The notes under the pieces were generated by a model, which saw only the letters and a program-made list of their open reading frames with translations, was not told where the DNA came from and searched no databases. From the NCBI GenBank assembly GCA_950295325.1, contig OX485807.1, forward strand, positions 3,722,501-3,786,500: a DNA stretch of 64,000 nt, read 5' to 3'. This document shows positions 4,626-62,598 of the stretch, in pieces (position 1 is the first letter of the stretch; every line of letters begins with the position of its first letter). The translations under genes were made by a program, and so were the position numbers. The DNA comes from Polytrichum commune (lineage: Eukaryota; Streptophyta; Polytrichopsida; Polytrichales; Polytrichaceae).

Positions 4626-4856
4626 CTGGACAATATTTTCCCAATTATGCAAGGATGAGTATAACACAAACCCAATCCATGACATCAATAGCTCCTGACG
4701 TTGGTGTATACCTTTCAACCGAACTGCTTTATACAAAGAGTAAAGAATCAGTAGAAAACATAGCTATATTTGTTTGCCCAACCGAATAAACACTTAGTGC
4801 CTTGAAAATTACTTTAGGAACGACATAAGAGAATGCCTTGATTGACCCCAATTTGC

Positions 4857-34223: not shown

Positions 34224-34624
34224 AATTGGTTACTAAACACATTTTTGACCTTACCATAAGTAGTGTAGAGTGCAAGCATAAATGCTCCCAAGTGTTGCAT
34301 GAGTCCCTATAACTAGCCTCAAATATCTTGAAAGGACCGCCATGTGCTCCCGTATTTAGTTAAATATATTGGATTACATGCAGCTTTATACATACATACA
34401 CGCAGGAATGTAACCCCGATAGGGACATTATCTCTAACAAACCAACCATTCAAACACAAATCTCGGAATCCAACATATACGACCCAAATGGAAAATACAT
34501 AACCACCATCACTACGGAAAGACTACAATAGCTATGGAATCAATTCACCCACAACAACTCCCCACAACTAACCAACTTCCTACAACCACCCCCACAAGAG
34601 TTTGAAACCGAAATACTATGGCTT

Positions 34625-36810: not shown

Positions 36811-36830
36811 AGGGAAGCTGACTAAAGTTA

Positions 36831-44680: not shown

Positions 44681-44716
44681 TACATACTATTGCAAACATG
44701 GTTTCATACAAGCCAC

Positions 44717-44737
44717 TAGATAGATAGATAGATAGAA
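44717..44737. repeat. (GATA)n microsatellite
   Basis: About five AGAT units, followed by an unassigned GC-rich patch to 44900 that contains a short hairpin around CCGGTCCCTGGGGTAGGGGC. I could not identify that patch. Confidence 0.7.
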
Positions 44738-45064
44738 ACTCCGGTCCCTGGGGTAGGGGCCGGCGTGAATAAAGTGTCCGTTCGTAATGCCAATAACCCG
44801 ATGCCCACAGGACAAAGGGAAATTGGAGCTATACTACTCTCCCCTTTCGAGGATGGACACTATAGTAGCCAGAAACCGAATAAAGAAAGCTAGCTGCAGC
44901 TGGCAGCCGTTTACTATTGTTTTGTTGGTGTTATAAGGTGTGATTTTGTGGCGTTGGTGTTTGCCAAGTCATGTTTCCTCGGTTGGTTGAAGGAGGATGT
45001 TATCAAAGACTATGCATCAAGTTCGTTGTTTCAAGAGCAAATTTCCTAACCACTTTGCGTTCAC

Positions 45065-45335
45065 ACTTAAACGTTACTAGTTATTGGGTGTATTTGGTTC
45101 TATCTTTGGTCCATTCTATGTTAATGTGGATGTTAACTATAGTTATGCGTTACTAGTTATTGGTCTATTTGGTTTTTTCTATTTTTTCTCTATTCTATTT
45201 TAATGTGGATGTTAACTATAGTTATACGTTACTAGGTCTTGGTCTATTTGGTCTTTTCAATTTTTGGTCCATTCCATTTTAATGTGGATGTTATCCATTC
45301 GAAGTTAATGTGGATGTTAACTATAGTTACATATA
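45065..45335. repeat. ~75-85-bp tandem repeats upstream of the zinc-finger gene
   Basis: Three to four diverged copies of CGTTACTAGTTATTGG, TCTATTTGGT, and TTTTAATGTGGATGTTAACT, ending ATAGTTA. They lie about 280 bp upstream of the 45618 ATG. Confidence 0.65.
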
Positions 45336-45617
45336 TTATATGTATCTAGTCAAGTATGTTTGTTTTTTAAAGATATTTGGAACTACCAGTTGAAAGAAAT
45401 TTTGACTCATAGTTGTATGTAATATATAAGCCCTAAGGTTGGGTGGAACATGCCTCTTCAACCTCATTATTATGATATTCGCCTTCGTATTTTTGCTTTT
45501 GTGTCTACTTCATTAGTATTTTTTGCTTTTGTAATCTGTTGTAAGTGCATTTTTCATATTTATTTGTTTTATTTATTTATAGAAAAATCAAACTGCTACC
45601 TTAATAGTTGACTTACT

Positions 45618-46713
45618 ATGGAGTATAGATGTGATGTATGTGATAGAATAATGAAATCTCAAGCACAGCTTGAATTTCATTATAAATCTAAAAAACATAT
45701 TAAAATGATTGTTAAATCCACATTATATGATACTAAAAATGTTACAACTCCGGATGAGGTTGTAATACAAAAGTTTCGATCACAAGGAGTTTCAATTCCA
45801 ATTGGAATTTGTCATGTGATCTATGTATCTAAAAAGGTGGATTCTTTAGATGCCTTTACTGAAATCACTACTTTTGCAATTTTGGTTGAAAATGAAAAAC
45901 TAGTGGCAATTATTGATTTCAATTTTTTTTCAAATGAATTGATAAACATATTGACCAATGAATGTAGTATACTATATACTGCAGGAGAAATAGTAGAAAG
46001 GGTGTAAGGAGAAGAGTGGTGGGGATATGGTTGTTTTTTTACGGAGAAATTGCTATGCTGAAGAATTTGGCATATATAAGCAAACTAATAGAAAAGGTAA
46101 GGAGAAAAATATGAAAATTTCAGCTGCAGATTTAAACACACTAAGTGCGCGAACAATGACTAGAATATTTGACGTGTTGAATATTCAAATGTCATCTTGA
46201 ATTTAAGATTTGAAAATTTTAGTTCCGAAAGAGTTAGGGACACTGTGGCGTCGTATTGGATATACTCCATTCACAACGATGACCGTGACAGAGAACTATT
46301 GGTCTCCTGACCATATAGATGACAAAGATGGAGGTTCTGGATTTATATTTTGGGTCCATGAAGGTAATTTTCAATTACAAAGTTTATTTTAAAACTAGTA
46401 TAAAAGTATGTCATCGTATGTTATACTAGAAGTTAAAAAATGTTGGATTCACTAGTTTCTGATGTTGTAATTAAATTCAACATATTTTGCAGAGATTCAA
46501 GACCACTCTCGAATTGAACGGGCACAATTCCGTATGAAGGACTATGGGTTATTTTTTCGTCCAACGCGTGGGACTTTAATATGTTTTGATGCTTCAAAAA
46601 TAAACCATGGTACAACTGAAAATACGGGGTATAAGCAATATGGAGTTGCCGTCTTAGTAAAGCTCATTGTTTTGAAAGCAGGTTTAAAAGCATTAAAAAA
46701 TTTGGTATTTTAG
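45618..46713 (+). pseudogene. C2H2 zinc finger plus 2OG-Fe(II) dioxygenase-like protein, one frame break
   Basis: The N-terminus has a U1/matrin-type finger (YRCDVCDRIMKSQAQLEFHY, then KSKKH; CxxC with two His). Coding runs to GEIVER at about 45999, where one extra G in a GGG run breaks frame. It continues CKEKSGGDMVVFLRRNCYA to 46096 (donor GTAAGG), resumes at 46226 (PKELGTLWRRIGY), breaks at 46363|GTAATT and resumes at 46493, ending in TAG at 46711-46713. The last part has TENYWSPDHIDDKD, with an HxD iron-ligand pair, a GTLICFDASKINHGT distal histidine and GYKQYGVAVLV. This order resembles the double-stranded beta-helix of 2OG dioxygenases, possibly TET/JBP-like. The substrate is unknown. 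The single frame break may be real or a sequence error. Confidence 0.5.
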
Positions 46714-46732
46714 GTACTAGTAGAAAAATACT

Positions 46733-46905
46733 AGCACATGTACATGTTAGTAGCCATGTTGGGACTGTATTGTCTTGTTGATTGTTGTTAAATGTCCCTG
46801 CATTCATGAGGGTGTAGCATCTTAAATTTTGTGATGATAGGATTAGTTTTTTTAATTCTCATACTGCTTTGTTATGTCTTTTGGTTCTGAGGGCGTGTAT
46901 GTGGT
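46733..46905 (-). repeat. Small duplicate fragment of the LINE 3' region
   Basis: Nearly the same as 47641-47814, in the same orientation (shared GCCATGTTGGGACTGTATT, GAGGGTGTAGCATCTT and TTTTGGTTCTGAGGGCGTGT). It corresponds to the segment between the zinc knuckle and the PD-(D/E)XK-like domain. Confidence 0.85.
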
Positions 46906-47000
46906 TATATTTTTATACATATATTATTTGTACACCATACTTGAAGATTAATACCTTTTTAATTACTAAAAACTGTTATTCTTGTTTTGAGTATGTTTTA

Positions 47001-47186
47001 CCTCTGAGTATGTTTTTTGCAAAAACCGCTATTTATGTAAAAACGTTTTATCTCTAAGTATGTTTTTCGCAAAAAACCGCTATTTATGTAAAACATTTTA
47101 CCTCTAAGTATGTTTTTTACAAAATCCGCTATTTATGTAAAACACTTTACCTCTGAGTATGTTTTTTGCAAAAACCGCTATTTATG
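47001..47186. repeat. 50-bp tandem repeat, 3.7 copies
   Basis: Units at 47001-47050, 47051-47100, 47101-47149 and 47150-47186 (partial), each containing CT(C/A)(T/A)GAGTATGTTTTTTGC-like sequence and CCGCTATTTATGTAAAA. It directly abuts the 3' end of the large LINE. Confidence 0.9.
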
Positions 47187-47216
47187 TTTTTATTTTTTTT
47201 CATTGTCTTGGCTTAT

Positions 47217-47960
47217 TTATTCTGTGGGGATTGCTTGATTGTTTTCTATACATCTTTTGTGTAGGAGGATTGAGCTAACGAATTGTATGGCAATAGTGTT
47301 TATTGCTTTGAATGTATTTTTAACATTGTTTTCAGGGATTTTAAATGTTTGTTCAAGTTGTTTCATTGATGGGATGTACGTAGTTCCTCTAGCTTCTACT
47401 GTTATGACTATAAATGGGTATACTTTCCATCCTTGTTGGGTGATGTCGTTAATTAATGGTTGGTATTTTTGGATTTTGTTGTTGATTGTATCTTGTGAGA
47501 ATCTATCATTAGTGTATGTAAATTCGATGAATTGTACCGTTAGGTTGTTGGTGGGGTGTGGTGGTGGGGTGCTTTGGTGCGGGAGTTCTTTTATACATAG
47601 AAGGTCAAGTTTGAGTCTAGCGTTGCAGTGGCATATTTGTTGTGTACATGTACATGTTAGAAGCCATGTTGGGACTGTATTTTCTTGTGGGTTGTTGTTA
47701 AATGTTCCTGCGTTCATGAGGGTGTAGCATCTTGACTTTTGTGATGATAGGATTAGTTTTCTTAATTCTCATACTGCTTTGTTATGTCTTTTGGTTCTGA
47801 GGGCGTGTATGTGATGTTGGTTGCATTTTAATAGTACGTCTAGCCATGTGTCTACATCTGGTGAGTTACAGATTGGGCATGTAATGGATAGGAATCTTTC
47901 TCTGCCAAAGAATAGTTGTTTTCTAGCGTTACCCATATATTGTCCGGTACGGAATTTTAG
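47217..47960 (-). pseudogene. LINE C-terminus: zinc knuckle and PD-(D/E)XK-like domain
   Basis: At about 47900-47830 the minus strand reads CPICNSPDVDTWLDVLLKC (CxxC ... C). From 47717 one frame runs to TAA at 47217 and contains CTCTQQICHCNARLK, LKLDLLCI (LD where the other copy has PD), VQFIEFTYTNDRF, IQKYQPLIND, GWKVYPFIVITVEARG and a helical tail. The VQFIEFTY and KY blocks are shared with the 36-kb copy, so they are under common constraint. The loss of the PD proline may matter little; the aspartate is kept. Confidence 0.65.
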
Positions 47961-48082
47961 GATACTAGTCTTTTGTGAATCTGTTATTGTGGGGTTAGAC
48001 CAGAAGTAATTAGATATTTCGTTGTCTATGTCTGGGTTTGTTTTTCATTTGTTAATGTTGGGGAATTGTATTGCCAATCTTT

Positions 48083-48760
48083 TTAGGTTGTTATCTCTAT
48101 CGTGTTTAGTGAGGTATGTTTCAAGGCATCAAATTGGGCCTTTGTCAGGTCTTTTGTTGGGTCCCGGCCATGTGTCTTTTTGGAAGTAGTATGGTGTGGT
48201 ATGTGCAAATTCATATGTTTTGGCAGCAAATCTATATTGTTTTTTAGTGCCTTGCTTTGCAAGTTGGTCAGCTTGTTCATTTCTGTCAATGTTTATGTGT
48301 GCTTTTACTTTATATATTGTAGTGGGTTGTGTTCGGTTTTTTAACGTTTCAACCATAGATGTCAGTATGATTTTGTCAGCATGGTTATTATGATGAGTTG
48401 GGTGTTTTATTTGTGTGTTGATTACATATAGGCAGTTTAGACAGTCTATAAAAATGTGTGCAGGTTCGATCGGATATTTGGTTGTGATTATTTTGAGGGT
48501 TTGTGTATGGCCATTAATTCGGCTCTAAAGCTGGTTTGTAGGCCGGGCAATCTTTTTGATATACGTATGTCTATTTTCGTTGGGTTATAGATATCATATC
48601 CAACTTTTTCTTTCTTCCAGTGCTCGTCATTAGCTTTTATGGGTGGGATAAACAAACCGTTGGTGTAATAGCTATATTGTGGTAGGAATTTTAATGTGTG
48701 TTGGGTTTCGTAGTTTGGTATTGGTGGTATGGGTGTAATTGATGGGTTATTATGTGGTGG
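48083..48760 (-). pseudogene. LINE RNase H, broken
   Basis: Fragments in several frames: TNGLFIPP (first acid changed D to N), SFRAELMAI (second acid kept), FIDCLNCLYVIN (third kept) and YKVKAHINIDRNEQADQLA (fourth kept). It is followed by FAHTTPYYF, the same junction that is frameshifted in the 36-kb copy. Stops and shifts separate the blocks. Confidence 0.7.
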
Positions 48761-49045
48761 GTAGAATAGTTTGTTCCATTTAATGTTCTTGTTTACGGGT
48801 GTATTATTTGGTGTGGGTGGAGTTGTTTGTATATGGTATTGTGTTATTTGTAGGTTTTCTATTGTTGTTTTGATTGTGTCTATTTGGTTGGGAGTGCCAA
48901 AATTATTGTGTTGGTGGTGGATGCAGAGTATATATATTGCTAATGGTTCTATTTGTGGTTTATTGAGGTTTTGAGGGTTTGTTGGTACGTCGTATGTAAT
49001 GGTATCTGTGGCGAAATGGGCTAGGACATGTGTGTCTGGGAACGG

Positions 49046-50239
49046 TCATGTATGTGGTGAGTAGTTTTGGTACCAATTTGGGTCTGGTGTGACTATTAGT
49101 GTGACGGTGTCTGAGTCATTTCTGGCTGCTAGGCGTGCCCAGTGTATTGCTTGTTGAGTCATTTCTTCGTTTTGTAGGTGGGCATAGCCAATTCCGTGCC
49201 GTTTGTATTGGAAAGCGGTGCCTAATGATCCAAAATTTTTATCTCTTGTGAATTGTGAGAAATATTTTGTAATATGTGTAGAGCATGTTATTGGTGAAGA
49301 GAAGTAGGAGTGTGAAATGTTAAATGCTTTTGTAATGGAGTCAAGGAGGTTCTGTGGGAGAGTGTATGGAGATGTTTTAAGTGGATCTTTTTTTGGTATT
49401 TTAGAGTTGTATCTTTGATATAGCCAGACTACCTCAGTTTCGAATGGTTGTGGGGATGGTATTAGGCCGTATGTCCTGTATGTGTCTTTGTTGTATTGTT
49501 GCCATAGCCAATTTAGTCTGGTGGTTGGGATGGTTATGAGATATCTCCCTATGTCTTCGTATATGTGTGTTATTTCGTTTTGTGTTTGTATAGTATGTTT
49601 CGTTGTATTAATGTCTCTTTTTGGGTTGCATTCTATTATTGATATTTGGGTGTGTGGTGTTATTCTAGGTGGTGGTATGAATCTTGGGTCTTTGGTTTGT
49701 ATGGGGGTTATATGGGTATGTATTAGTTTGTTGTAGTGGTTGTGTTGTTGTTTTGTATAATATTCTTTTAGTAGGTTTATGTTGTGTTCGATTACTAAGG
49801 GATGGTTTGGTGGGAATAGTTCTTTTTGTGGCATCCACTTGTAGTATGTTGCGTTGTTTTGGAGTGACCATTGGTATAGATATGTGTTAAATTTTTTTGT
49901 TATTTTATATTTATCTTTCGTTATGTTTGCTTTATGATTTAGTATGTTGTATATGGGAAATTTGATTGGGTTATTTGTCATGTTGGGGGGTGGGTTTGGT
50001 TGTTGGGGTTGTTGTGTTGGTGGCGGGTGTAAGGGGTTGTCCAAGATTCTAGGTAGTAATTCTCTATTATCTGATATGTATTTTTCTTGGAGGGTACGGG
50101 CTTGTGGGTGTCTATTACATTGGATTGGACAATTTTGGTTACAACTTTGTTGGCAGAAAAGTTGTTCTGCTATGTGTAGTGCGTTTTTTATTAGTTTTGT
50201 CGGGGTTTTATAGTAGGTTTGAAAGTCTGTTGGTGACAT
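49046..50239 (-). CDS. LINE ORF2 middle segment of unknown function
   Basis: A 397-codon open frame. The N-terminal part has a cysteine cluster (CQQSCNQNCPIQCNRH). The last ~110 residues (NISHSYFSSPITC, FGSLGTAF, AIHWARLAAR, TVTLIV) match the 34.7-kb copy closely. It lies between the RT and RNase H, where most LINEs have only a short linker. The residue order of the conserved block is vaguely like a phage-type adenine methyltransferase, but I see no clear DPPY motif, so no function is claimed. Confidence 0.6.
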   Translation of the reverse strand: MSPTDFQTYYKTPTKLIKNALHIAEQLFCQQSCNQNCPIQCNRHPQARTLQEKYISDNRELLPRILDNPLHPPPTQQPQQPNPPPNMTNNPIKFPIYNILNHKANITKDKYKITKKFNTYLYQWSLQNNATYYKWMPQKELFPPNHPLVIEHNINLLKEYYTKQQHNHYNKLIHTHITPIQTKDPRFIPPPRITPHTQISIIECNPKRDINTTKHTIQTQNEITHIYEDIGRYLITIPTTRLNWLWQQYNKDTYRTYGLIPSPQPFETEVVWLYQRYNSKIPKKDPLKTSPYTLPQNLLDSITKAFNISHSYFSSPITCSTHITKYFSQFTRDKNFGSLGTAFQYKRHGIGYAHLQNEEMTQQAIHWARLAARNDSDTVTLIVTPDPNWYQNYSPHT

Positions 50240-50409
50240 TAAGTGTGTGCCATTGGGAAGGGAAATGTGTTTTATTTTTTGTATGTTTAGTGTTAGGAGT
50301 TTATATAGTAATTTAAAAGATAGTTCTTTGTTTAGTTGTGGTAGTACGACTGTGGCCTGGGATTTCCATTCTATTTCAAGTTCAATTGCATGGAGCTGGA
50401 AATTTGTTT

Positions 50410-50883
50410 CTATGCTTTTGAGGTGAGCTCCTCCTTCTTTTTCATAAGAAATAGTGTTCGTGTTGTAGGTGATCTTGTGCAGTCGTGGTATTTGATTCTT
50501 TGTATGTCTTCTGCGCCTCCATATTTTGCAAGGATATGTTGTATAAGTCCTTTGTAGATTATGCCAAGTCTGCCGGGATCATTAAGTGCATTTCTGAGTT
50601 GTTCGCTAATACATCTTAGGTAGGCATTTTTTAATGAGAAGGCTTCCAGTCCAAACAAGTCATGTGGTAGTTGGGTTATTATATTTGCTGTACATTTAGG
50701 TAGACCACATATTACTTTTTGGATTCTTATAATTTTTTTGTCTAATTTTTTGATAGCTGGCATTGAGTATGGGACTGCATAAAAGCTATATGCTATACCG
50801 GCTCTTATGACAGTGTCTACCATACTTATTTTTTGTTTGATTGTAACTGGGCAGTTTGTTAGTAGTTTGCATTGGTTTATCAT
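50410..50883 (-). CDS. LINE RT C-terminal (thumb/connection) segment
   Basis: 157 codons with the typical LINE post-RT pattern: KISMVDTVIRAGIAYSF, MPAIKKLDKKIIRIQKVICG and LFGLEAFSLKNAYLRC. In LINEs this segment follows the palm domain. It is separated from the RT frame by about 160 bp in which frames change, so the ORF is broken there. Confidence 0.7.
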   Translation of the reverse strand: MINQCKLLTNCPVTIKQKISMVDTVIRAGIAYSFYAVPYSMPAIKKLDKKIIRIQKVICGLPKCTANIITQLPHDLFGLEAFSLKNAYLRCISEQLRNALNDPGRLGIIYKGLIQHILAKYGGAEDIQRIKYHDCTRSPTTRTLFLMKKKEELTSKA

Positions 50884-51048
50884 TTTAGTTGTGGTGATGT
50901 GTGTTTGGAGTTTCCATTTTAATGATGGTACTAATTGTATGCCTAAATATACGTATGGTTCGTTTTGGTGTAGGACGAGTAGTGGTTGGTTTCTGTAGTG
51001 GATGTTTTGGGCTTGGATTTTGGTTTTGAATATTTCAAGTTTTATTTT

Positions 51049-52245
51049 TTATTTATTTGGGCATCCCGTGATGGCACATTTTGGAACTCCCAGGTCCATT
51101 CCGGCCCATTCGCAGTATTTGTCTAGTTTGTGTAATTGGGTCTGTATTGATTGGAGATTGCTTGTAATGGCTGCTAGATCAGCTGCGTATGCTACAGAGC
51201 TGATTGTTAGTTTGGATGTACCGAATGTATACCCATTATTCCCTCGTTGTAGCCAACGTAGCAGTGGTTCTAAGAATATTAGGAAGAGGTATGGACTGAG
51301 TGTGTCACCTTGTATTGTGCCTCTTTGTATTGGTATGAGTTTTGTTTTTCCGAAGTGTTCTCCTGTAAATATGGTATTGGAGTTTGAATAAATATTTCCT
51401 ATCAAAGATACGGCATCTTCTGGATATCCTAAGTCCTTAGTTACTGCTAATAGTCGTGCGTGATCAAGAGATCCGAATGCGTTTTTGAAATCGATATATA
51501 ATAGATAGATGTCTTGGTTTGTAAATCTTGCGTGTTCTAGTGCTGCTATGAGGAGTTGGAGTTGTCTGGATGTGTTTCTTTCTGCTCTGAATCCTTCTTG
51601 GCTGTCGTGGAGAATTTGGTATTTTTCTCCATATGCTAATAGTATGGATGTAAGGGAGCTCGTAAAGAATTTGTATATTGTGTTTGCAAGTGCGATTGAT
51701 CTGTGGTTTGTTAATTTTGATGGGTCTCCTTTTTTGTATAGTAATATTGTTAGACTTATTTTCCATGAAGTTGGTATTTGTTTTCGTCTATAACAGTGGG
51801 AGAATAATAAGGAAAGTATGTTGTGGAAGCTTTCGGACATGTTTTTTAAAATTATGTTGGGAATTTTGTCGGGGCCGGGTGTTTTGTTGTTTGCTAGATT
51901 CTTTAAACACATATCGTATGTTGCTCTGTCAAAGTATTCATGTAATGGAGCTTTAGAGTTTCTTCTTTTTTCGATGACAAATCCGTCTAGGTCGTGCCAT
52001 GGGTATTGTCTAATACCACATGTGCACTTTGGTGTGTGTTTTGGTTGGTGGTAGCATATTGGTACGGTGGGTCTATTGCTAATAGATTGTTGGTTGTGTA
52101 TTTCATTGGCTATGTCTGTGGGATTTGTAAGTACGTTGTTGTTTACGTCTGTAATGTAGTCTAATGGGGGTGTTTCTTGGTTTGTGAAGACTCTTTTGTT
52201 GATTTTCTTGGGGTTTTTGTCGTATAGTAGTCTATATTTGGACAT
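51049..52245 (-). pseudogene. LINE reverse transcriptase with YAAD active site
   Basis: A 398-codon frame covering the RT palm and fingers: LANNKTPGPDKIPN, PTSWKISLTILLYKKGDP, NHRSIALANTIYKFF, QEGFRAERNTSRQLQ, DIYLLYIDFKNAFGSLDH (first catalytic Asp), RGTIQGDTLSPYLFLIF, then SVAYAADLAAI. The last motif should read YADD; here the first Asp of the pair is Ala (GAT to GCT), which should abolish polymerisation. Downstream GMDLGVPKCAITG follows. Otherwise it is intact. Confidence 0.88.
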
Positions 52246-52719
52246 GGTTTTTTAATGCATTCTTGGGTGTATTTTGTGGTAATTTTTTGGGCATGTATAT
52301 GTACGGTTTTGGCGATTTGGGCTAGTGTTGCTATCCATTCAAGCTGATTAGGTTCTTGATTGGGGGGGGTGGGATGGGGGTTTGGATATGGTTCCTTAGT
52401 TCTTCGATTATGGGGTGTGTTTGCCAATTTGGTGTGTTTTTTATCAGGTAAATTGCTTTCCTAATTAGGTGGTAGGTGGAAAGATAGTTTTTTCATTTCT
52501 TTTGGAGTTTTCTTTGTAGAAAACCTCCTTGTTGTGATGTACAGTTTGTGAGGTCTGGGAGAGGTGGTGCACTGCATGTATCTTGGATTTTGTCGGAGAT
52601 TTTTTTTGTATGATATGTTCAAATTTTGTGCATGTTGTTTGCCATTGTTCATTTGTTAGTTGGTCTTGTATTAGGGTGTTCGTGAGTTCATTTAGCTGTG
52701 GTGCATTTTCTTCAAAGAA

Positions 52720-54222
52720 TTATGTATTGAATTTTTCGATGTTTATCTGTGGGATGGGGTTTGGGATCCTTGGGGGTTTATCTGTAGTTGGTGGTGGACA
52801 GCGGGCTAGTAGTGTATTTGGTGGGATGTGTAGTGTTACTGGGGAGTGGTCTGAGTTGAGGTTGTGGTCATTGTTTATGGTTGATGTGTATAGGTTGTTA
52901 TTGGGTGTTTTGATGTAATATCCATTTATTAGGCTGGTTTGGTTGTAGTTTTGGCCTCCTTGTCTAGAGTATAGGTTGTTTGTTTGGATGTATGTAAGTA
53001 GTAGATTGTCTGTGAATGTGCGCCATTCTGTGTCTTCTGCTTGTGGTGGTGTTGTGGTGTAATCGTTTTGTCTTCCAATTAGGGCTATGTCCCTGTTAAA
53101 GTCTCCGCATAGTATGTGTATATGGTTTGGGTGGTTAATGGTTTGTTGTGTTATGTTTTGTTTAATTAGCGGTATGGATCCTATGTCTTCTTCGTGTGAT
53201 GGCATATACATGTGTATTATTAGCCAGGGTTGTAGAGGTTGGTTATGTATTTTTATTATTTGTAGATATGGTGATATTATAGCTGGGGTAGGTATTTTGG
53301 TGATATTACCTGGGTATGCATATTCTTTATTTATGAGTGTGAGGAGTCCACCTCTTGCAGGTGTATATGGCCTTCTTTGTTGTATGCATCTTGTTAGTGA
53401 GTATGTATTATTAAATATTAGTTTATATTGTGGGAATAGATTTTGAATGTATTTCGTGGATTTGGTTGCCGTTAATTTAGTTTCTTGTATGGTAATAATT
53501 GTTGGTTTGTTTGGTGTATGGGATATAAGTTGATGGAGGTTTGGTAGAGTTGTGTTTAATGATGAAGCGTTCCATGTGATTATGTGCGTGTTGTAGTTTG
53601 TTGTATGATTTTCTTGAGGGTGTAGGGTGGGTGTGGTGGGTGGTGGTGGGGGGTGTGAGTATTCGTGGAGCGGTTCGTTGCATTTTAGTGCTTCTGTAAG
53701 TAATTGTAGTGGTAAAAAGGGAAATTTGTCTGACATTGTTTGTATGGTTAGTGGTGTATTACTTTGTTTAATGAAATCATATAGTTCTTTGTGGATGGTG
53801 GTGGGTGGGTTAATAATGTTTTGGTTTGTTTGGAGGAATTGTGTATATGGGTGCATGGTTATGATGTGTCTTTCCGGTGGGTTTTGGAGTGAAGCCATAC
53901 GTTCTAATACTATTGTTGTCCAATTTGGTTTTGGGGTTTGTATTAATATATGATTACATGTTTCTATTATTGGGCTAATTGTGGTAATAAGTGCGTACAA
54001 TATGCGTGGGGGTGGGTGGTGTTGGTTTCTATAAATGTATCTTGATAGGTATGGGTAGGCAGTAATTGTGTCTTGGTGTTTGGGGTGTGTTAGATTTATT
54101 ATAGGAGAAAATTGTTTTGCTAGGTGTTGGTATTCGGGTTGTAATTTGATTGTGCACTCTATAAAGTAGCTTTTGCATCTATTTCTATGTGTGGATGGGT
54201 GTGTTTGTAGGTTATTGGGCAT
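52720..54222 (-). CDS. LINE apurinic-like (APE) endonuclease domain
   Basis: A 500-codon open frame, starting with the ATG before PNNLQTHPSTH. The first ~200 residues are unassigned. The APE fold follows: HIITWNASSLN, ITIQETKLTA (catalytic Glu), RGGLLTLIN, WLIIHMYMPS, HILCGDFNRD (Asp/Asn) and LNSDHSPVTLHI (Asp-His pair). All catalytic residues are present, so this is the best-preserved enzyme of the element. It nicks the target DNA in APE-type LINEs. The link to the RT (52.7-52.25 kb) is frameshifted. Confidence 0.87.
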   Translation of the reverse strand: MPNNLQTHPSTHRNRCKSYFIECTIKLQPEYQHLAKQFSPIINLTHPKHQDTITAYPYLSRYIYRNQHHPPPRILYALITTISPIIETCNHILIQTPKPNWTTIVLERMASLQNPPERHIITMHPYTQFLQTNQNIINPPTTIHKELYDFIKQSNTPLTIQTMSDKFPFLPLQLLTEALKCNEPLHEYSHPPPPPTTPTLHPQENHTTNYNTHIITWNASSLNTTLPNLHQLISHTPNKPTIITIQETKLTATKSTKYIQNLFPQYKLIFNNTYSLTRCIQQRRPYTPARGGLLTLINKEYAYPGNITKIPTPAIISPYLQIIKIHNQPLQPWLIIHMYMPSHEEDIGSIPLIKQNITQQTINHPNHIHILCGDFNRDIALIGRQNDYTTTPPQAEDTEWRTFTDNLLLTYIQTNNLYSRQGGQNYNQTSLINGYYIKTPNNNLYTSTINNDHNLNSDHSPVTLHIPPNTLLARCPPPTTDKPPRIPNPIPQINIEKFNT

Positions 54223-54229
54223 GGGACCT

Positions 54230-56350
54230 GGGTTGGTTTCAATATCTCGGCTAAGTAGTAGTAGTAGGTGTACGATAGGTGCTTGGTTTATAGGAAGGTT
54301 TTTTCGTGTTTTAAGGTTTATGTTCCGTTGTTTATTGTTTCTTATTTTATTGTCTGGGTTGGTTGTATGTCTTGGGTGTTTAGTGGTGTTTTATTTTTTT
54401 GCTTGGTATGCGTGGTTTTGTATTGGTTTCTTCTTCTAATTTTGTTTATTTGGTTTTGGGCGAGGCCGGCAGGCCTAGCCTTTTTTGTTTTTGTTTTTTG
54501 TTTTATTTGGTCAGAGGTGTTACGGGATGCTTTATTATTATTTTTTATGATTTTGGGTGTTTGTGTTTGTTTAGGGTTTTTTGAGCCATTCTTGTTTTGT
54601 TTTGGGCTATCGTTCTTATTTTGTTTTGTTTTTAGCTTTGTTCATGTGTAAGTAATGCGGGATGTGGTCTTGGTGATTTGTTTGGGTTTGGGTGGATTTG
54701 TTTTGGGCCTATCTTTGTTTTGTTGTGTGCTTATTTTAGTATTGGATAATGTTATGGGATATAGTGTTAGAGTAGGGGATATTGGTGTTTTTTTAGGAAT
54801 GTTTTTCTGCACATGTTTGATGACTTTATTGGTTGGGGGAATGTGGTTAGGTATTGTTTTTTGTGTTTTGTATGGTGATGGTTTTTTGTGTGTGTCTTTA
54901 GGTCTTTTGGGGTGTTTTCTGGTTATGTTTAGTTGTTCTTTACTTGTAAGTTTTGATTTTGATTTTGGTAAGATTTGATTGCCTTTATGTAGTATTAACA
55001 GTAGGTGTAGGGGAGGTGTTTGGTCTATGGGAGGATTTTTTTGTTCTTTGTGGTTTGAGTTTTGTTGTTTATTTTTATTGTGATTTTTTGTAGAGTTTAA
55101 GGTTGTTATATGATTTGGATGATTTGTGTTCTCTTGATGTGTTTGTTTGTTGATATGTGTGGTTTTATCTAGGTGCTTTCTAGTTTGTTTTATTATTTTA
55201 TTATTTTTTTGGTTACTTTGTTTTGGGCGAGGCCGGTAGGCCGAGCCCGTTTTAGGTGGTTTTTATTGGTACTCTGTGTTTGGTTCTTTTTGTGTTTTGG
55301 TTTTTTTGGGTATTTCTCGAAGGGAGTGTGTTGGTGTTAAAGTTTATGTGTTTGTTTGCGTGGTTTATTGAAGTAGTGTATCTAGTGTTAGGTGTGTTTG
55401 TTTGTTTTGTTCTTTGTTTTTTGTATGTTTCCGGTTGTTTGTATGTGTTTATGATTTTGAGAGGGTGTTTTTTGTTTACGTTTTTTTCTTTTTTACGAGG
55501 TTTTTTGGGGTTGGGTTTATGTTTGTGTGCTTTTGGGATTTTGGGATTTTGGGATTTTGTGTGTTTTATTGTTTTTTATTTGTGTGGGGGCATTAGAAAG
55601 TGTTTTCCCTTTGTTATGTTTTATGTTTTTGTGTGTTTGTGTTTGTATGGAGGGTTTAGGTTTTTTGTTGTTTTGATGCTTGGGGCTATGGGTTTTTATT
55701 TTTTGTGTTGTTTTTGTGGGACCATTAGGAGGTGCTACCTTTTTGTTTGGGGTTTTTGTTTGTATTGGATTTGTTTTTTGTATGTCTTTTTTGTGTTGTG
55801 CTTTTGTTTTGCCAAGAATGTTTGTGTATAACCTAAGTAGGAGGTGTAGTGGATGTGCTTTGGGGTGGGGTTTTATTCGTTTATGTTGTGGGTGTTTATT
55901 ATTATTATTATTATTATTGTTTTTGGATTTTATGTTTTTGGAGTTTGTATGTTGTTTGGGCTTATTCTTGTATTTTTTTTGGTTCCGGGCGAGGTTGGTA
56001 TGTCTGGTTTGTTTGAGGTCTTTGTTTGTTTTTATTGTATTTTGAAAGTTTTTTCTTTGTTTCTTTGTTTGATGTGTGTTATAAGGTGGTGATGTGTATA
56101 TCCTTTTGTGATTAGTTGTGTGTTTTGTTTTTTTGGTTGGGTTGGTTATGTTCATTCTAAGTATGTGTGTTGTAATTTTTGGAGTATGATATTTATGGTT
56201 TTGTATTATACTTTTGCTATAATTTTGTTTGGATGGTGTTTTGTGTTTTTGTTGTTGTTGTTGTTATTATTATTATTATTATTTTTGAATTTTTATCTTT
56301 GTTATGTTTATATTTGTTTTGTACTTGGGCGAGGCCGGTAGGCCGAGCCC
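54230..56350 (-). repeat. ~0.76-kb tandem repeats with a conserved hairpin in the LINE spacer
   Basis: A GC-rich motif, GGGCGAGGCCGGTAGGCC followed by GAGCCC, recurs at 54458, 55225, 55987 (diverged) and 56327 (spacing 767, 762 and 340) in otherwise T/G-rich plus-strand sequence. Flanking GTAGGTGTA and GTGTTTTT-type blocks recur with the same period. The motif folds as GGGC, GA, GGCC, tetraloop GGTA, GGCC, GA, GCCC. ATT and GTT microsatellites occur in two units. Confidence 0.7.
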
Positions 56351-56776
56351 GTTTTATGTCTTGGGGGTTTTCCCTAACTTTCTTTTGATGCGTGTTTTGG
56401 TGTTTGTTAGTTATTATTTTGTAGCTTTTTGTGTGTAGGGTTTGCTTTATTATGTTGAGTTTGTATGTTGCTTTGGTTTTGTGTGTTTTGGGGTGTGTTA
56501 GTTTTGTTTTTGTTTGATTGTTGTTTTTTGTTTTTGGTTGGTTTGATATATTTTGTTTATGTTTATGTTGATGCTTTTGTTTTTGTTTTAGTTTATATAC
56601 TTGTGTGAAAGCATTTAGGAATGCTTTGGTTTTATTTATTTTTGTTTTAATTTTTTGTTTTGTTTCTTTATTGTTAGCATTTCCAAATGCTATTGGGTTA
56701 TTTTTTCCTTCTTCTTTTTCTTTTTGTGTGGGTACACACATTTTTTGTAGGTGGGCTATTTGATTGTTTGTCCAAT

Positions 56777-59503
56777 CTAATTTTCCAATTGGGGTTGTGT
56801 TGGGGCTAGAATGGAGTCAAGTGCTTTTGTTGTCATATTAACTGCTTGCGATGTAAGTGCTAGTTGTTTTCTTCTTTCCGCCAGTTGATTTTTGACATGT
56901 GTTGTCAGGTTTCGGGTGATTCTTTCTTCACGTACTCCCATTTCCTTGTGGATTTCTACTGTGAGTTCTGTTTTGAGCTCAATCATGAGTTGCTCATTTC
57001 TTTTGTCCATGGCGGTTTCCACCAATGCATCTAGGTCATCGTGTGTGATCATGGTACTTTTGTCGCAACCCTTGCTAGCCCCCCCTTGACCATCTTGCCA
57101 ATTTTCAATTCTAGCAAAGGTTACGAGTGGCTAACCCTTCGCATACCGCCATGCTAATGGTTAGCTCCTCTAACCCCGGACCATTAGTTCATAGGAGGGG
57201 AACCAACCCTCCTACTTTGATTTCGGGACTCACCCCTTTAATCGGTAACCAATCCTTAGATGTGGACTTCCATCCATGGAAGTCCAATCTTATGTTGATC
57301 ATCGCGTTGCCGGAGCAACACTACAACAACCCGAACCATACTAGGCAACTATGGCCTCACATTGGGCCAATGCCCATGGAGGCCGTGCCGTTCGGCCTCG
57401 GGTGGGTGAGGCCACACCACCTCACCCATATAAGCCTCTAGGACTTCACGCGGGGCCCCTACCCCACCGTCAACCAACCTCTTGTCTCTCTACCAAGAGT
57501 TGGGGCCAAGTGGACATTTTCCTTTAGCTGCTCGGCCTAGAACCCCCTAGCAGCTTCAGACCATCATAACTTCCTTGTATGATGTCTGATCATAACAACC
57601 AACCACTCCATCTTCATCTACGCTTCACGTAGATGCCGATGGACTCCTCACTTGCCCCATTCGGCCAAGTATTGAGGACGTTATGCCTCTTTGAACCTTG
57701 GCAGTCCCGGGAATCACTCCCAGGCACTGCTGTACCAGGGCGCTGTCCCGGGACAGCGCCCCACTCAAATGGCCATAACTCCTAGCTCACACCTCCGATT
57801 GAGGTGTTCTTGAGCTTTCTAGAATCACCACGCCATGAGCTACGCATAACTCATGGCCTTACCCTTGTGCCTCCTAGTCTTCGTGGGTGGGAGGCGTTCC
57901 CAACGCCCGGGGCCCTCACCCACACTAGGATCACTTGGGCCCTCTCACCAACGGCGCCACAAGTCCCGGGTGTCACTCCGGGGTCCCCCTTGTGCCCATG
58001 GTGTTTCGGGCACTCCTCATGGAGAGGTGCGCGACAACTTTTCCCTTTGTTTTGTGGTGCATTGCGAGTTGCCTCAAGTGTATGCGCAATGGTTGTGGAT
58101 ATGTCACAAAACCCAAGTTTTTCTTGTTCCTCTTTGGTGGGTGGTATTGCACCTTGTAAGCTTTTTGGATGAGGAGTAAAGCTCACATGCTTGCCAAAAA
58201 TTTCTATGGTCTTGCCTACCCATTGTCTATAGACAATGACGTTGAGGCATTGAACATTGGCCGTGCCCTTGTGGAGATTACCTACTTGGCCTGGAAAGTA
58301 AAAAGATGCTACGTTCAACTCACCTAGAATTGCTTTGATAGAGTCCTTCGTGTCCTCAATTTTCTTCATTTTGTGAAGACCATAGAGGCATAGCATGGTG
58401 GCATTTTTCTTTTTGATTTCTTCCTCAGTGAGCCCTTCTCCGCGACTCCTCCTCTCTGCTTGAGCTGCTTGTGGTGTGATGACATGCATGAGTTCTTTTT
58501 TGTATGGAACTAGGTATTGTATGATTCTGTTTGTTTGTGTAGGCGTGGTTGAGATAAGCCATCCCCATGTTTCCTCTTTGACTTTTTGCACACTTGCAAT
58601 CTCATAGTCATACCCACGTCTAAAGTTTTCAATTAGAACATCTCTTTGTAGCTCACTGGAAGATATGAGGTGTAGTTTGGGGTTTTCAATCTTTGTGGAT
58701 AGCAAAGTGTTTCTTGCTACCGAATCATAACATTTACAAATTTTGCCTAAGGTATTGGTGTTATCTATTGTCAAGATAAAGGGGCGTAGCCCCTTAAGCA
58801 TGCCAATGCCATCTACTTTAGGGTGCTTGAGGTGGATTTTAATGGTCCCTGTCCAAAACTTTACTTTGCTATTTCTCTCTTTTTCTTTGCATGGGATGTG
58901 GATGGGCTTAGCCAATCCTATCCCCAATTCAATACCCATCTTTGCTAGTCTAGCTGTGGCCATGTTGAGAACCTCATTGTGAGTATAGTCTGTGGATGGT
59001 TTGTCAAAATAAGCAGCTATGTGGTAATCAAGAGAAAGTCCCGTGCCAGGATCGACCTCTGTTTCGATGGGTAATTGGGTTAAGTTGAAGTGTTGCCCAC
59101 CTTTCCCATCCGGTCTCTCTAGTGGGTAGAGTAGTTGTTTCACATGCGGGAATGCAACCTTGAAGATTTGACTCATCTCCTCTGCTTCTTTCTCCGATAT
59201 GCCCATTTCAATGAGGTCCTCCTTCTTCATTGATGGCCTACAATCCTTGGCTTTCACCCCTTCATCAATGGCGAGCTTCTCCATAGCCACAATCCCTAGC
59301 CAAAAGTCTTTCGGTGTGTCCTTTAATCCGGTTGTAAGCTCCGCACTCTTCTTCTGCTTGCTTGAGTTGCTTCCTTTCTTTGTCTCTTGTGTCCTCTTGG
59401 TTTGGTGGGCCTCTATTACCATTGTGTCTTCTATCTCTTCCATGTTGGTGTCGGTGGGGCTCCTCATGATGGCATCATGTACTGCCTTGCCTCTATTTGC
59501 CAT
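56777..59503 (-). pseudogene. LINE ORF1-like protein, interrupted by a solo LTR
   Basis: The start is the ATG at 59503 (MANRGKAVHDAIM), preferred to the upstream open sequence, which is made of a minisatellite. The protein has an acidic and basic N-terminus, SMKKEDLIEMGISEKEAEEM, VKFWTGTIKIHLKHPKVDG, LRPFILTIDN and ETWGWLISTTPTQTN, and then is broken at 58041. After the LTR it resumes at 57055 with THDDLDALVETAMDKRNEQL and a coiled coil to a stop at 56777-56779. LTR plus duplication is 981 bp, a multiple of three, so the two parts share a frame; the uninterrupted length would be 581 residues. No RRM or CCHC is obvious. ORF1 proteins bind LINE RNA; that role is inferred. Confidence 0.6.
57061..58036. 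mobile_element. Solo LTR with 5-bp target duplication
   Basis: A 976-bp insertion starting TGTCGCAACCC and ending GGTGCGCGACA (TG ... CA with a 6-bp inverted terminus), flanked by ACTTT at 57056-57060 and 58037-58041. A TATAAG lies near 57429. There is no internal gag-pol, so it is the product of LTR-LTR recombination. Composition differs sharply from the LINE sequence around it. Orientation is unproven; the TATA favours plus. Confidence 0.82.
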
Positions 59504-59744
59504 CTGTTGATCACAATGATTGCTAATGTTTTGGTGAGTAGTTAAGGTAGTGCTTTTATCTCCTCCTCCTTTTTGCGCATGCAATCGGGCTTTGTAGAGG
59601 AGATTAGAGCTTATGTTTGTTTGGTTATAATTTTTACACATTATATGGTTTAAAAGAGGTTTTATGGACGTATGTGCTACTTTGCTTGAAGGTGTGTTAG
59701 ATTGTTGTGGTAAACTGAGTTTAGTAATTATCCTAGATATTGGA

Positions 59745-59860
59745 ATGAAATGGAGGGCATGTGCATGATATGATGGTATGTGCATGAAATGAAATGCATG
59801 TGTATGAAATGGAAGGCATGTACATTGAATGAAAAGCATAAGTGTGAAATGATGGTATAG
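59745..59860. repeat. ~20-bp minisatellite upstream of ORF1
   Basis: Repeats of (G)TGCATGAAATGAAATGCATG-like units. On the minus strand they give a spurious His/Phe/Met-rich extension of ORF1, which is why I did not use an upstream start. Confidence 0.7.
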
Positions 59861-60054
59861 GTTAGAGGACTTACCTGGAGTGCTGGATTCGTGTTCGAGT
59901 GTCGTTGTTGCAAGCTTGACTGTATGTGATTCGGTGTGGATTGGCCTCTGCATGTGTTGAAGGAGGGGTGGAGTGCTTGGAGGAGCTTTGGCCTATGTTG
60001 CTTTCGGTGGTGAGGCTGACTTAGGTAGAGTCAGTGTGTTTTTACAGTGAGTTG

Positions 60055-60142
60055 CTCATTCATTCATACCGAAGCCATTGCCCAACTACAATGTAAGCCC
60101 CCCATCACTCTCAGTTTTAGGACTATGGTTTGAATGAATGAG
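60055..60142. repeat. 16-bp inverted repeat
   Basis: CTCATTCATTCATACC at 60055-60070 and GGTTTGAATGAATGAG at 60127-60142 pair with one mismatch around a 56-nt loop. It lies upstream of ORF1 and could be part of the LINE 5' region. Confidence 0.6.
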
Positions 60143-60357
60143 CTTCTCTTACTGTTTAAACGGACCTTAGTCTACCTTGCTAGCCTTACTTTCCTGGGTG
60201 TTGGTTAACTCCGGACCAGAATCACCCTCATCGCAATTAAACTGCCCAAGCTTGGGTCACCGAAAATATTTATAGGTGTAATGTTCGTTGGGTCGGCGTT
60301 AGAACCTGGATCTCGGTCCCTCTCGAGCCACTAACCATTACCTTCGATCTGCTACCT

Positions 60358-60590
60358 CCGGTCTCTGATCTGCAAACTTCCGATCTCCGAACTGCGGGCC
60401 TTCGGACTTCAATCAGCGAACCTCCGGTCTTCAATCAGCGAACCTCCGATCTCCGATCTGCAACCCTCCGGTCTTCAATCAACGAACCTCCGATCTCCGA
60501 TCTGCAGGCCTCCGGTCTTCAATCAGCGAACCTCCGATCTTCAATCAGCAAACCTCCGATCTCCAATCTGCTAACCTCAGCCTCCTGTCT
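60358..60590. repeat. ~21-bp minisatellite (AACCTCCGATCTCCGATCTGC type)
   Basis: About ten units alternate between CCTCCGATCTCCGATCTGC and CCTCCGGTCTTCAATCAGCG. It has no coding function and may be the repeated 5' leader of the LINE. Confidence 0.8.
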
Positions 60591-60599
60591 GTTGGTCCA

Positions 60600-62598
60600 G
60601 TTTCCGACAGCTTTCCTCGGCCAGCCTTACGAACACCCTTACGAAGAACTGTGACGATTAGTTAGCTTTGCGGACCGGGATCACCCTCAGCGCTCCGAAA
60701 CTTAGATCGTCACATTTCTCTGCCAAAGCCCCTCCTCTCCACCATGTGGGTCTCAGTGAGCTGCTCCGCTCATCTCCCCCGTGTGCCGTTCCATCACCTC
60801 TACATACTACTCCTCAGCCAGGAGGAACACAATGATACCTCCATTACAAGCCACTACATAAAACTTGTGCTTGAGGATCATATTACAGAACACAATAACA
60901 TTATTTGACCATGTAATACAATCTTGAAACAAAGACACCTACTTCCATGTGTTTACACATTACACCTAATAAATTCCTTTAACCATGAAGACTACATTTC
61001 ATTATTGGCTATTGGATTAAAATGAAGGATGAAGAAGACAAACACTTGCAACTATATCATTCTAATACATCAAACAAAACATAGCCATATCACACTTGCA
61101 TATCATATACATGCATGTAACAATTAAAATATCATTCATCATATGCAATACAAAAATGTAGATGTATTCCAAAAAACAAAAAACGCTCATGTACATCAAA
61201 GCATGACAACCTCATATTTGCAATTAAGGGCTACCCAAACTTGCACATTTTGTATTGTAATATGGCCATCACCATGAACATACTCATGTTGCCAACCTAA
61301 TTTTAGGTGTAGATGGATGGCGTAAAGGTCAATGACGTCAAGGCATGAGAGTGGACAAATGCAGAGGCAGTCAAGCGTTGGGTTGTTGAAAACCCATGAC
61401 TATCTCTAGCAACTCCATGTGGATGTCAATCCAATGTGCAACCTGCTTATAGACAAATCATACTAAACATAAATTCTCAGATCCTAAAATTCAACCCCTA
61501 TATTTATTCTACTAAAAAGTAATGACCCACATTTTATACCTAGATTATACCTTAAGTTTTTTAGGGCTCCATAATGGTTGTTGTATACAACCGGACAGGA
61601 TATGGCCATCCTCCCTTTAACATTGTTTGATGAATAAAAAAAACAGGAAAGCTTAACAATGTTGAAGTGGATGGGCATTTCACAGTGTAACCTGTACATG
61701 GGAGACTTAACTACACCAGGTACTTATCAGTTCCCAACTCTGATGATCATAAATTCAACACATAAAAATTCCGACCCAAGCTGGACTTAGATTCTGAGCT
61801 TTGAATAATAGATTATACGACAACGATGACAAAGAAGAAGACATTCATTGTCAAAATGATATTTAAATAGTTATAACTTAAACAGGGCCTCTTGGCACGT
61901 GTTGACAAATATACTATCAACATATGTCATTCATGGGTTCAGATCATTGGGTTCTGCTCTTACAAGCAACATATCATCACAATTCCTCCCAGTGAGGGCT
62001 ACAAATAAGATAATTCTCCACCTATCAATACACGGAACCAGCAAGCGGATTTGGTAATAAAAGATGCAACTCTAGTCGGTTTAATTGCTGGTTTATCAAA
62101 TGGTGTGAGCTACACATAACTTCTAGGGGCTTTTTAGTTGGTGTCCCTTATAAAACCAACAAATTTTTTTTGAGAATCTCCAGTCCCCAGAGTTCAACAA
62201 TGAAATCGTGTTGTCAATTGTGATGTTCTTTGTCCTCTCAACTTCAGTGACACAAATGGTGACCAGCTACTTTTGTCGCACGTCATCAAACACTCATACT
62301 GTGCTGTGATAAATCTTGCAATGTAGATAAAACTAAGAATACCACAAAAAACCCAGAAAACCATCATAATCCCAGCCCTGTACTCAGCTTGGAAAATAGG
62401 TCAAAGCCTGAAAGAATCCATAGGTATTGAGACCAACTTTATTTGATGAAGATAATGTGTTCTTTAGAGTGGCAATTGTTTGGAAGTCAATAAGTTCTCT
62501 GGACCTCCAAGATGTTGTGTATGGAGGTGAAAGTTGTCACCCTGTCGCAGAGAAAATTATTGATGTCCCAAAATATCACTGTACAAGCACGAACAATG
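60600..62598. other. Intergenic, no gene recognised
   Basis: No exon or RNA gene is supported. A short stretch near 61490-61560 resembles part of the hAT MITE at 28150-28220. The right side is the 3' flank of QPT. Confidence 0.4.

What the first reader, a model, noticed from the sequence alone, without database searches (positions are those of the whole stretch)
47217..54222. LINE apparently carrying two endonucleases (APE and PD-(D/E)XK-like) plus RNase H
Seen: in order on one strand, an APE domain with all catalytic residues, an RT, RNase H, a CxxC...C knuckle, then a domain with (P/L)D, VQFIEFTY and a KY motif, conserved in both copies. Known: APE-type plant LINEs (L1, RTE) lack a restriction-like endonuclease; the Dualen/RandI group described from green algae has both. 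Inference: a land-plant member of a Dualen-like group, or an independent case.
Basis: partly seen in the sequence, partly recalled or inferred. Interest (0 to 1): 0.85.

Follow-up and report, generated by a model that had tools for sequence, protein, structure and literature searches.

The report
Dual-endonuclease LINE in a land plant
This is a very large, recently active "copy-and-paste" element in a land plant that carries two unrelated DNA-cutting enzymes, an arrangement so far reported mainly from algae, together with a degenerate RNA-cap methyltransferase domain that I could not find described in such elements.

Summary
The window has one full-length decayed element (44719-60844, minus strand, perfect 12-bp target-site duplication) and one 5'-truncated copy (34389-36963, plus strand). 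ORF2 order: 2A-like motif, APE, RT, chromo-like segment, PCIF1/CAPAM-like domain, RNase H, CCHC, C-terminal nuclease. The predicted fold of the C-terminal domain matches R2 restriction-like endonucleases best in the PDB (VIA rows 1-7; Foldseek E 8.7e-6). The RT lies outside the L1 clade. The 408-Mb genome holds at least 116 and 150 matches to the two copies; nine listed ones have open frames of 2038-2919 aa. One 11,965-bp copy has a perfect 12-bp duplication. The domains tested are under purifying selection. It works like Dualen/RandI; RT membership in that clade could not be tested, because no Dualen sequence was available. New here: a land-plant host, a PCIF1-like domain lacking the NPPF motif, 2A-like motifs and a covarying 3' RNA structure. 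Verdict: a real, new variant of a known kind.

The parts
44719..60844 (-). copy A: complete element (5' end 60844, 3' end 44719 with (CTAT)n tail), 16,126 bp including an extra segment in its 3' part
   Evidence: perfect 12-bp TSD on both sides and 3' end homologous to family C
60845..60856 (-). target-site duplication, 5' side of copy A (TAGTGGCTTGTA)
44707..44718 (-). target-site duplication, 3' side of copy A
57854..59992 (-). ORF1 of copy A (open frame 713 aa; a Met at 59503 precedes the conserved part); no Pfam match; 37% identical to ORF1 of family C over 405 aa
54223..54264 (-).
52837..53583 (-). APE endonuclease (PF03372/PF14529), catalytic residues present
   Evidence: compare
51067..51732 (-). 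reverse transcriptase, RVT_1 match; active box mutated to YAAD at 51169-51192
49805..49966 (-). chromo-like segment (weak: Pfam Chromo E 0.029 and CDYL2 E 0.17 with relatives; three strands and a helix in the model)
49085..49456 (-). PCIF1/CAPAM-like domain without the NPPF motif (PF12237 match)
48246..48679 (-). RNase H (split over two open pieces in this copy)
47772..47879 (-). CCHC region of the R2 type (His changed to Asp in this copy)
47217..47768 (-). restriction-like endonuclease of copy A (PD changed to LD)
   Evidence: fold from the relatives and copy B
46996..47187 (.). 49-bp tandem repeats after the ORF2 stop codon
34389..36963 (+). copy B, 5'-truncated: part of PCIF1-like domain, RNase H, CCHC, RLE, 3' UTR
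34374..34388 (+). target-site duplication, 5' side of copy B (TTACATGCAGCTTTA; 3' side 36964-36978 TTACATGCAACTTTG, 13 of 15 bases equal)
34823..34897 (+). PCIF1-like core of copy B
35381..35797 (+). RNase H of copy B
   Evidence: motifs
36148..36246 (+). CCHC of copy B
36412..36564 (+). RLE active-site region of copy B (RPD, VQFIEFTY, KHTKY)
36820..36960 (+). structured 3' UTR of copy B (multi-branched helix, terminal hairpin, T-rich tail)

Best explanation
An autonomous, recently active non-LTR retrotransposon (LINE) of a land plant that carries two endonucleases. Inferred: one transcript of about 12 kb holds ORF1 and an overlapping long ORF2; ORF2 is reached by translation through or after ORF1, and a 2A-like ribosome-skipping motif releases the enzyme. 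Inferred: the RT binds the conserved 3' UTR fold and primes on nicked chromosomal DNA (target-primed reverse transcription). The two nucleases divide the work; my guess is that APE makes the first nick and the RLE with its CCHC makes the second. The staggered cuts give the 12-15 bp duplications seen. RNase H removes the RNA. Inferred: the PCIF1-like domain, which lacks the catalytic motif, binds capped RNA or the transcription machinery. Shown here: anatomy, predicted R2-like fold of the RLE, predicted PCIF1-like fold, selection on the domains tested, TSDs, 3' RNA covariation and recent copies.
For: Domains by Pfam in two long open ORF2s, L021 and L023: RVT_1 4e-26 and 1e-32, RNase H 2e-16 and 1e-14, APE PF14529 1e-7 in both, PCIF1 5e-6 and 3e-6 (these two below its curated cut-off; copy A 39 bits and L036 36.5 bits are above it). 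RLE fold: Foldseek ranks 1-3 are R2 proteins, probability 1.00; VIA rows 1-7 are all R2, Z 10.0-8.2, 181-206 residues aligned, next row Z 5.9. P150, E178, K194, K197 and Y198 are invariant in 18 of 18 aligned rows and D151 in 17 of 18. APE catalytic residues are invariant in 6 of 6 aligned rows (L025, whose frame is broken in APE, was left out). dN/dS in 7 pairs of diverged copies, where dS could be computed: RLE 0.07-0.16, APE 0.10-0.19, PCIF-like 0.08-0.17. TSDs. 3' UTR: 8 of 34 pairs have compensatory changes in 14 sequences. Recent activity: 99.7% identity over 3,129 bp between two copies; three 2625-aa frames.
Against: No activity of either nuclease, of the 2A motif or of retrotransposition was measured. 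The RLE model has mean pLDDT 62.9 (125 of 279 residues at 70-90, none above), and by sequence alone the link to R2 is weak (E 0.38; a single sequence found nothing). Several copies have a changed PD (copy A LD; L012 RPN; L016 RPY; L017 RLD; L028 and L034 PN), as expected for dead copies but also possible if the RLE is dispensable. Of the R2 proteins, Bombyx R2 scores lower with the RT profile (86.7 and 82.5 bits) than human L1 (94.0-89.9), although the other R2s score 134.0-149.6. Strict D(V/I)ExNPGP is kept in 5 of 9 loci looked at. L021's RT lacks about 47 residues after YADD. Which nuclease cuts which strand is not known.
Confidence: 0.87

Rival explanations
1. An ordinary plant L1/RTE-type LINE whose C-terminal tail only resembles a nuclease.
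For: APE and RNase H occur in plant L1s, and the genome does hold many zf-RVT elements of the L1 type. Human L1 RT scores above Bombyx R2 with the RT profile.
Against: RT outside the L1 clade (100/98); best RT score with turtle and finch R2 (149.6 and 134.6 bits); R2-like fold of the C-terminus; no zf-RVT match in L021 and L023 at E up to 1.
Confidence: 0.03
2. An R2-group element (RLE type) that independently gained an APE domain, not a member of the Dualen/RandI clade.
For: RT scores best with some R2s; with two group II-type maturases as outgroup the dual clade joins R2, but with support 53/17 only.
Against: Both nucleases with RNase H is the make-up of Dualen as summarised in papers (order recalled); two independent gains are less simple. 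The tree does not decide (dual+L1 p-AU 0.159).
Confidence: 0.17
3. The RLE is the only working nuclease and makes both cuts as in R2; APE is a relic or serves another role (or the reverse).
For: R2 makes both cuts with its RLE (recalled).
Against: Both nuclease domains keep catalytic residues in the aligned copies and have low dN/dS.
Confidence: 0.3
4. Domain juxtaposition is an assembly or nested-insertion artefact.
For: The window copy is interrupted and carries an extra segment in its 3' part.
Against: The same order is in single open frames at other places and elements are bounded by TSDs.
Confidence: 0.01

Closest known systems
Dualen/RandI LINEs (green algae; also annotated in cryptophytes)
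   Same: APE and RLE in one element (passages in PMC4640811 and PMC3636483), RNase H (PMC4640811); short simple-repeat tails, (ATT)n or (CTATTT)n in the table of PMC3747384, against (CTAT)n and (CTTTT)n here
   Different: land-plant host; PCIF1-like domain, chromo-like segment and 2A-like motifs (whether algal Dualens have them I could not check); no cysteine protease found by Pfam (Dualen's is recalled from the 2005 abstract)
R2 LINEs
   Same: CCHC plus RLE fold at the C-terminus; best RT match among solved proteins is an R2; structured 3' UTR (R2's is recalled)
   Different: APE, RNase H and ORF1 present; inserted at unrelated sites, not in one rDNA site
plant L1
   Same: APE, RT, RNase H, two ORFs
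   Different: RT in another clade; RLE at the end; other tail
PCIF1/CAPAM cap adenosine methyltransferase
   Same: predicted fold (the first five Foldseek rows) and PF12237 match
   Different: NPPF catalytic motif absent in 31 of 31 rows read; part of a LINE polyprotein
2A-like motifs of APE-type LINEs of animals and trypanosomes
   Same: D(V/I)ExNPGP upstream of the APE
   Different: here in a plant dual-endonuclease element, in some copies twice in tandem

Membership tests
Dualen/RandI | APE upstream of RT | tested here: met
Dualen/RandI | C-terminal RLE with CCHC | tested here: met
   fold and motifs
Dualen/RandI | RNase H present | tested here: met
Dualen/RandI | RT in the Dualen clade | not testable with these tools
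   no Dualen sequence held; tree with R2, L1 and group II-type maturases only; two scans of viral contigs found no relative
Dualen/RandI | cysteine protease domain (recalled from the 2005 abstract; perhaps not defining) | tested here: inconclusive
   no peptidase among Pfam matches to ORF1 and ORF2; the paper itself was not held
L1 | RT in the L1 clade | tested here: not met
RTE | RT in the RTE clade | not tested
   no RTE reference was used
R2 | RLE as the only endonuclease | tested here: not met
   APE with catalytic residues in 6 of 6 aligned rows
R2 | single target site | tested here: not met
   3' flanks of the copies printed differ from each other by eye; the three TSDs found differ
PCIF1/CAPAM | fold of the methyltransferase | tested here: met
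   Foldseek ranks 1-5, E 7.7e-6 to 1.3e-4, probability 1.00; model confidence low (mean pLDDT 43.6)
PCIF1/CAPAM | NPPF catalytic motif (recalled) | tested here: not met
   0 of 31 rows after leaving out 2 opposite-strand chance rows; some rows are the same place fetched twice, one (L034) is broken there, and copies not fitting the search pattern were not seen
2A | D(V/I)ExNPGP | tested here: met
   5 of 9 loci strict; the other 4 have NPGP with E replaced
2A | ribosome skipping | not testable with these tools
   needs a translation assay

The most novel reading that the evidence does not exclude
A land-plant LINE clade that kept both endonucleases and also captured a cap-specific adenosine methyltransferase (PCIF1/CAPAM), which lost catalysis but is kept by selection. 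It would serve as a cap- or Pol II-binding module that ties the 5' end of the element's RNA to the integration complex, so that one protein holds both RNA ends while two nucleases cut the two strands.
Probability: 0.25. Interest if true: 0.82.

Novelty: new variant of a known kind. Interest (0 to 1): 0.64.

Why it matters
How LINEs passed from restriction-like to APE endonucleases is an old question. Dualen was read as the intermediate (PMC4640811, passage). A 2015 table lists it only from green algae among the groups compared (PMC4438587), and a 2025 paper annotates it in cryptophytes (PMC12747079). A land-plant genome with hundreds of matches, several families with long open frames and recent insertions gives material in which the roles of the two nucleases could be tested in a multicellular plant. 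The PCIF1-like domain, if its role were found, would be an unexpected use of an RNA-cap enzyme in retrotransposition. It also warns that plant repeat annotation limited to L1 and RTE (as in the review PMC9033089) can miss a major element in some genomes.

Tried and rejected
Two scans of viral contigs with the RLE profile and the RT profile found no relative. A search of solved structures with the single C-terminal sequence found nothing at E up to 10; the profile gave Bombyx R2 as best at E 0.38; only the fold comparison was decisive. Rooting the RT tree with two nuclear intron maturases failed: long branches, dual+R2 53/17, dual+L1 not rejected (p-AU 0.159). I considered and rejected: L1 with a chance tail; nested insertions; a working methyltransferase (NPPF absent in the rows read). 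The open frame upstream of the 2A motif may be partly non-coding: the strand is poor in T, identity there is low and dN/dS is 0.47 and 0.57 in the two pairs measured. Literature searches. In one search six papers hold both 'Dualen' and 'plants': four are TE or genome papers, whose passages with 'Dualen' I read and which do not report it from land plants; two are psychology papers by title. Searches list no paper that by its title treats PCIF1 in a retroelement; those listed were not opened, save passages of PMC9033089 (other terms) and one passage of PMC7641849. In one search I saw only the 25 listed of 528 papers, only 20. These searches cover open-licence papers only. Rows left out of the RLE alignment A2 (18 rows kept): loci with stops or a gap in the domain, repeats of the same place, and L005, L012, L015, L016, L017, of which L012, L016 and L017 have a changed PD and L005 has KH for KY. 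Three of the five plant rows in the RT tree (L041, L042, L045) were picked by their RVT_1 match and called L1-like from the tree; only L043 and L044 lie at zf-RVT matches.
Full report
What was claimed.

The observation. It is correct. Pfam finds APE (PF03372 7.8e-7; PF14529 2.4e-4), RT (PF00078 1.8e-21) and RNase H (PF00075 1.2e-5) in the successive open pieces. The last piece has no Pfam family but carries the motifs named, and the copy on the plus strand has the same domain. A paper passage says that this family is not a WW domain but a CAPAM-like methyltransferase (PMC7641849, one passage).

True borders. Copy A runs from 60844 to 44719 on the minus strand. A perfect 12-bp duplication TAGTGGCTTGTA lies at 60845-60856 and 44707-44718, and the 3' end (GGGACCGGAGTTTCTATCTATCTATCTATCT) matches that of another family. 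It includes ORF1 (57854-59992), which is 37% identical to ORF1 of that family over 405 aa. Copy A is dead: ORF2 is broken into pieces, the RT box is YAAD, the first RNase H Asp is lost, PD reads LD and the His of the CCHC is Asp. Copy B spans 34389-36963 and is 5'-truncated; its duplication is TTACATGCAGCTTTA against TTACATGCAACTTTG, 13 of 15 bases equal.

The family in its genome. The genome (G000, 407.8 Mb, 64 contigs) was searched with the C-terminal domain. Copy B finds 116 scored places, 72-100% identical; copy A finds 151, 63-100% identical among those listed. Both lists are cut by the tool and are lower bounds. Five of the 116 rows have an open frame of at least 2000 aa without a stop in the match (2422, 2305, 2123, 2038, 2372 aa) and a sixth has one stop (2638). 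Four rows do (2919 and three of 2625). I fetched eight of these ten places. Three families emerge: B (copy B, L021-L026), A (copy A, L035) and C (L036). One family-C copy is bounded by a perfect 12-bp duplication, TCCATTCTTAAC; from the coordinates I work out 11,965 bp. Its 5' part is 99.7% identical to that of another copy over 3,129 bp. So the group was recently active. The host is a land plant: contig C8 carries matK beside psbA (recognised by eye), there are 42 dirigent matches and a Stig1 gene lies in the window; the meaning of dirigents is recalled.

The C-terminal nuclease. An alignment of 18 rows from families A, B and C keeps P150, E178, K194, K197 and Y198 in all rows and D151 in 17 of 18. 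Rows dropped before that alignment include some with a changed PD (listed in Tried and rejected). AlphaFold2 gave a model with mean pLDDT 62.9 and a helix-strand-strand-strand-helix-strand core. Foldseek against the PDB ranks three R2 retrotransposon proteins first (E 8.7e-6 to 3.6e-5, probability 1.00), then cap-snatching endonucleases. VIA-align puts seven R2 entries in rows 1-7 (Z 10.0 to 8.2, 181-206 residues) above a gap to Z 5.9. By sequence the best PDB match of the profile is also R2 (Bombyx), at the CCHC/RHNK part, but with E 0.38 only. Together these make an R2-type RLE very likely.

The other domains. APE keeps N21, E50, Y142, D177, N179, D236, D261 and H262 in 6 of 6 aligned copies (L025, broken in APE, was left out). 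The PCIF1-like domain was tested three ways. Pfam: 39 bits in copy A and 36.5 in L036, over the cut-off of 31.1; 26.7 and 27.4 in L021 and L023, below it; and in the genome 150 listed matches at 41.9-55.6 bits (I did not check for each whether it lies in such an element). Fold: the five best Foldseek rows are human or zebrafish CAPAM/PCIF1, E 7.7e-6 to 1.3e-4, probability 1.00, although the model has mean pLDDT 43.6. Motif: NPPF (recalled) is absent in 31 of 31 rows read; 30 have AFP, AHP or AHL forms and one is broken. So it is probably a degenerate methyltransferase fold. Before it lies a chromo-like segment: residues 1-50 of that model form strands and a helix with block pLDDT 67-74, and Pfam Chromo and CDYL2 match weakly (E 0.029 and 0.17). 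This stays a suggestion.

Selection. Nei-Gojobori dN/dS between diverged copies (six B-B pairs and L035-L036), where dS could be computed: RLE 0.07-0.16, CCHC 0.04-0.05, APE 0.10-0.19, RT 0.04-0.07, RNase H 0.06-0.15, PCIF-like 0.08-0.17, chromo and linker 0.17-0.38. In some cells dS was saturated and no ratio could be given. The pair L023-L025 is too similar to judge.

Reverse transcriptase. The RT profile scores two vertebrate R2s at 134.0-149.6 bits, human L1 at 89.9-94.0 and Bombyx R2 at 82.5-86.7, so nearness to R2 as a whole is not shown by scores. A tree with five L1 or L1-like elements of the same genome, human L1 and two R2s gives three clean groups: dual 100/100, L1 100/98, R2 100/100. 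With two intron maturases as outgroup the order is not resolved. This fits a deep lineage outside L1 but does not place it in Dualen, for which no sequence was available.

Translation and RNA. A motif of the 2A type (GDIELNPGP, SGDIETNPGP, CGDIEPNPGP) lies between ORF1 and the APE in the nine loci looked at, strict D(V/I)ExNPGP in five. L025 and L026 have it twice in frame, 462 bp apart. In L021 no in-frame AUG lies upstream of it within the open frame, and ORF2's open frame overlaps the end of ORF1 in L035, L036 and L026. Conservation between families rises at this motif. I infer that ORF2 protein is released by ribosome skipping. That 2A-like motifs occur and act in LINEs, and that 2A works in plant cells, is in PMC4981915 (passages). 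The 3' UTR of family B folds into a multi-branched helix and a terminal hairpin before a T-rich (CTTTT)n tail; 8 of 34 pairs have compensatory changes among 14 sequences. Flanks after the tail differ between copies.

How it works. Shown: anatomy, predicted folds, selection, duplications of 12-15 bp, recent copies. Inferred: target-primed reverse transcription with the 3' UTR fold as recognition signal, and two staggered nicks shared by the two nucleases. Which cuts first is a guess (APE first, about 0.45). That the PCIF1-like domain binds a cap or the polymerase tail is a guess.

Known or new. Dualen/RandI has both nucleases (passages in PMC4640811 and PMC3636483). A 2015 table lists it from green algae only (PMC4438587), and a 2025 genome paper from cryptophytes (PMC12747079). 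A 2022 review of land-plant TEs names only L1 and RTE LINEs (PMC9033089, passages). The 2005 Dualen paper was not held. In the searches named under Tried and rejected I found no report of Dualen in land plants and none of a PCIF1-like domain in a LINE; closed literature and Repbase were not searched. I therefore call it a new variant of a known kind.

Noticed in passing
window 45540-46735: Inside the 3' part of copy A, on the opposite strand, lies a fragment with a C2H2 zinc finger (PF12171 1.6e-8) and a TET/JBP oxygenase-like piece (PF12851 E 0.0014, below cut-off). A genome search gives 19 matches, the window's own and 18 others at 91-95% identity, some of them parts of one place; one (C1:67781534) sits beside a copy-A-type RLE match. 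In L058 it is next to the 49-bp repeats, but no RLE matched in the stretch held. It may be a captured host gene carried by a subfamily.
   Followed up: partly
window 46736-46903: 95% duplicate of the RLE-coding piece 47646-47813 downstream of ORF2; I saw no second copy of it in the relatives L028-L031, whose matches there are the main RLE piece.
   Followed up: partly
L025 and L026, about 2.0 and 2.4-2.5 kb on the element strand: Two 2A-like motifs in tandem in one frame, 462 bp apart. The window has further open frames with HLLL-type stretches at 54642-56263 without NPGP (by eye).
   Followed up: partly
L050/L051 5' end: The family-C element in L050 begins GAAGATCTGACTCCCCCAAC at its duplication; L051 holds 2.1 copies of a 48-bp unit with this sequence, perhaps promoter repeats.
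   Followed up: no
families B and C, 3' end: The last hairpin before the tail shares ATTCA(C/T)GCCGG between families, which could be a common RT recognition element.
   Followed up: no
window 20630-21703: Transposase pieces (PF04827 Plant_tran 1.1e-53 on 21137-21703), probably Harbinger-type (recalled).
   Followed up: no
window 797-4684: Minus-strand kinase (PF07714 9e-51) and TIR domain (PF13676 1.3e-11) pieces close together, perhaps one gene.
   Followed up: no
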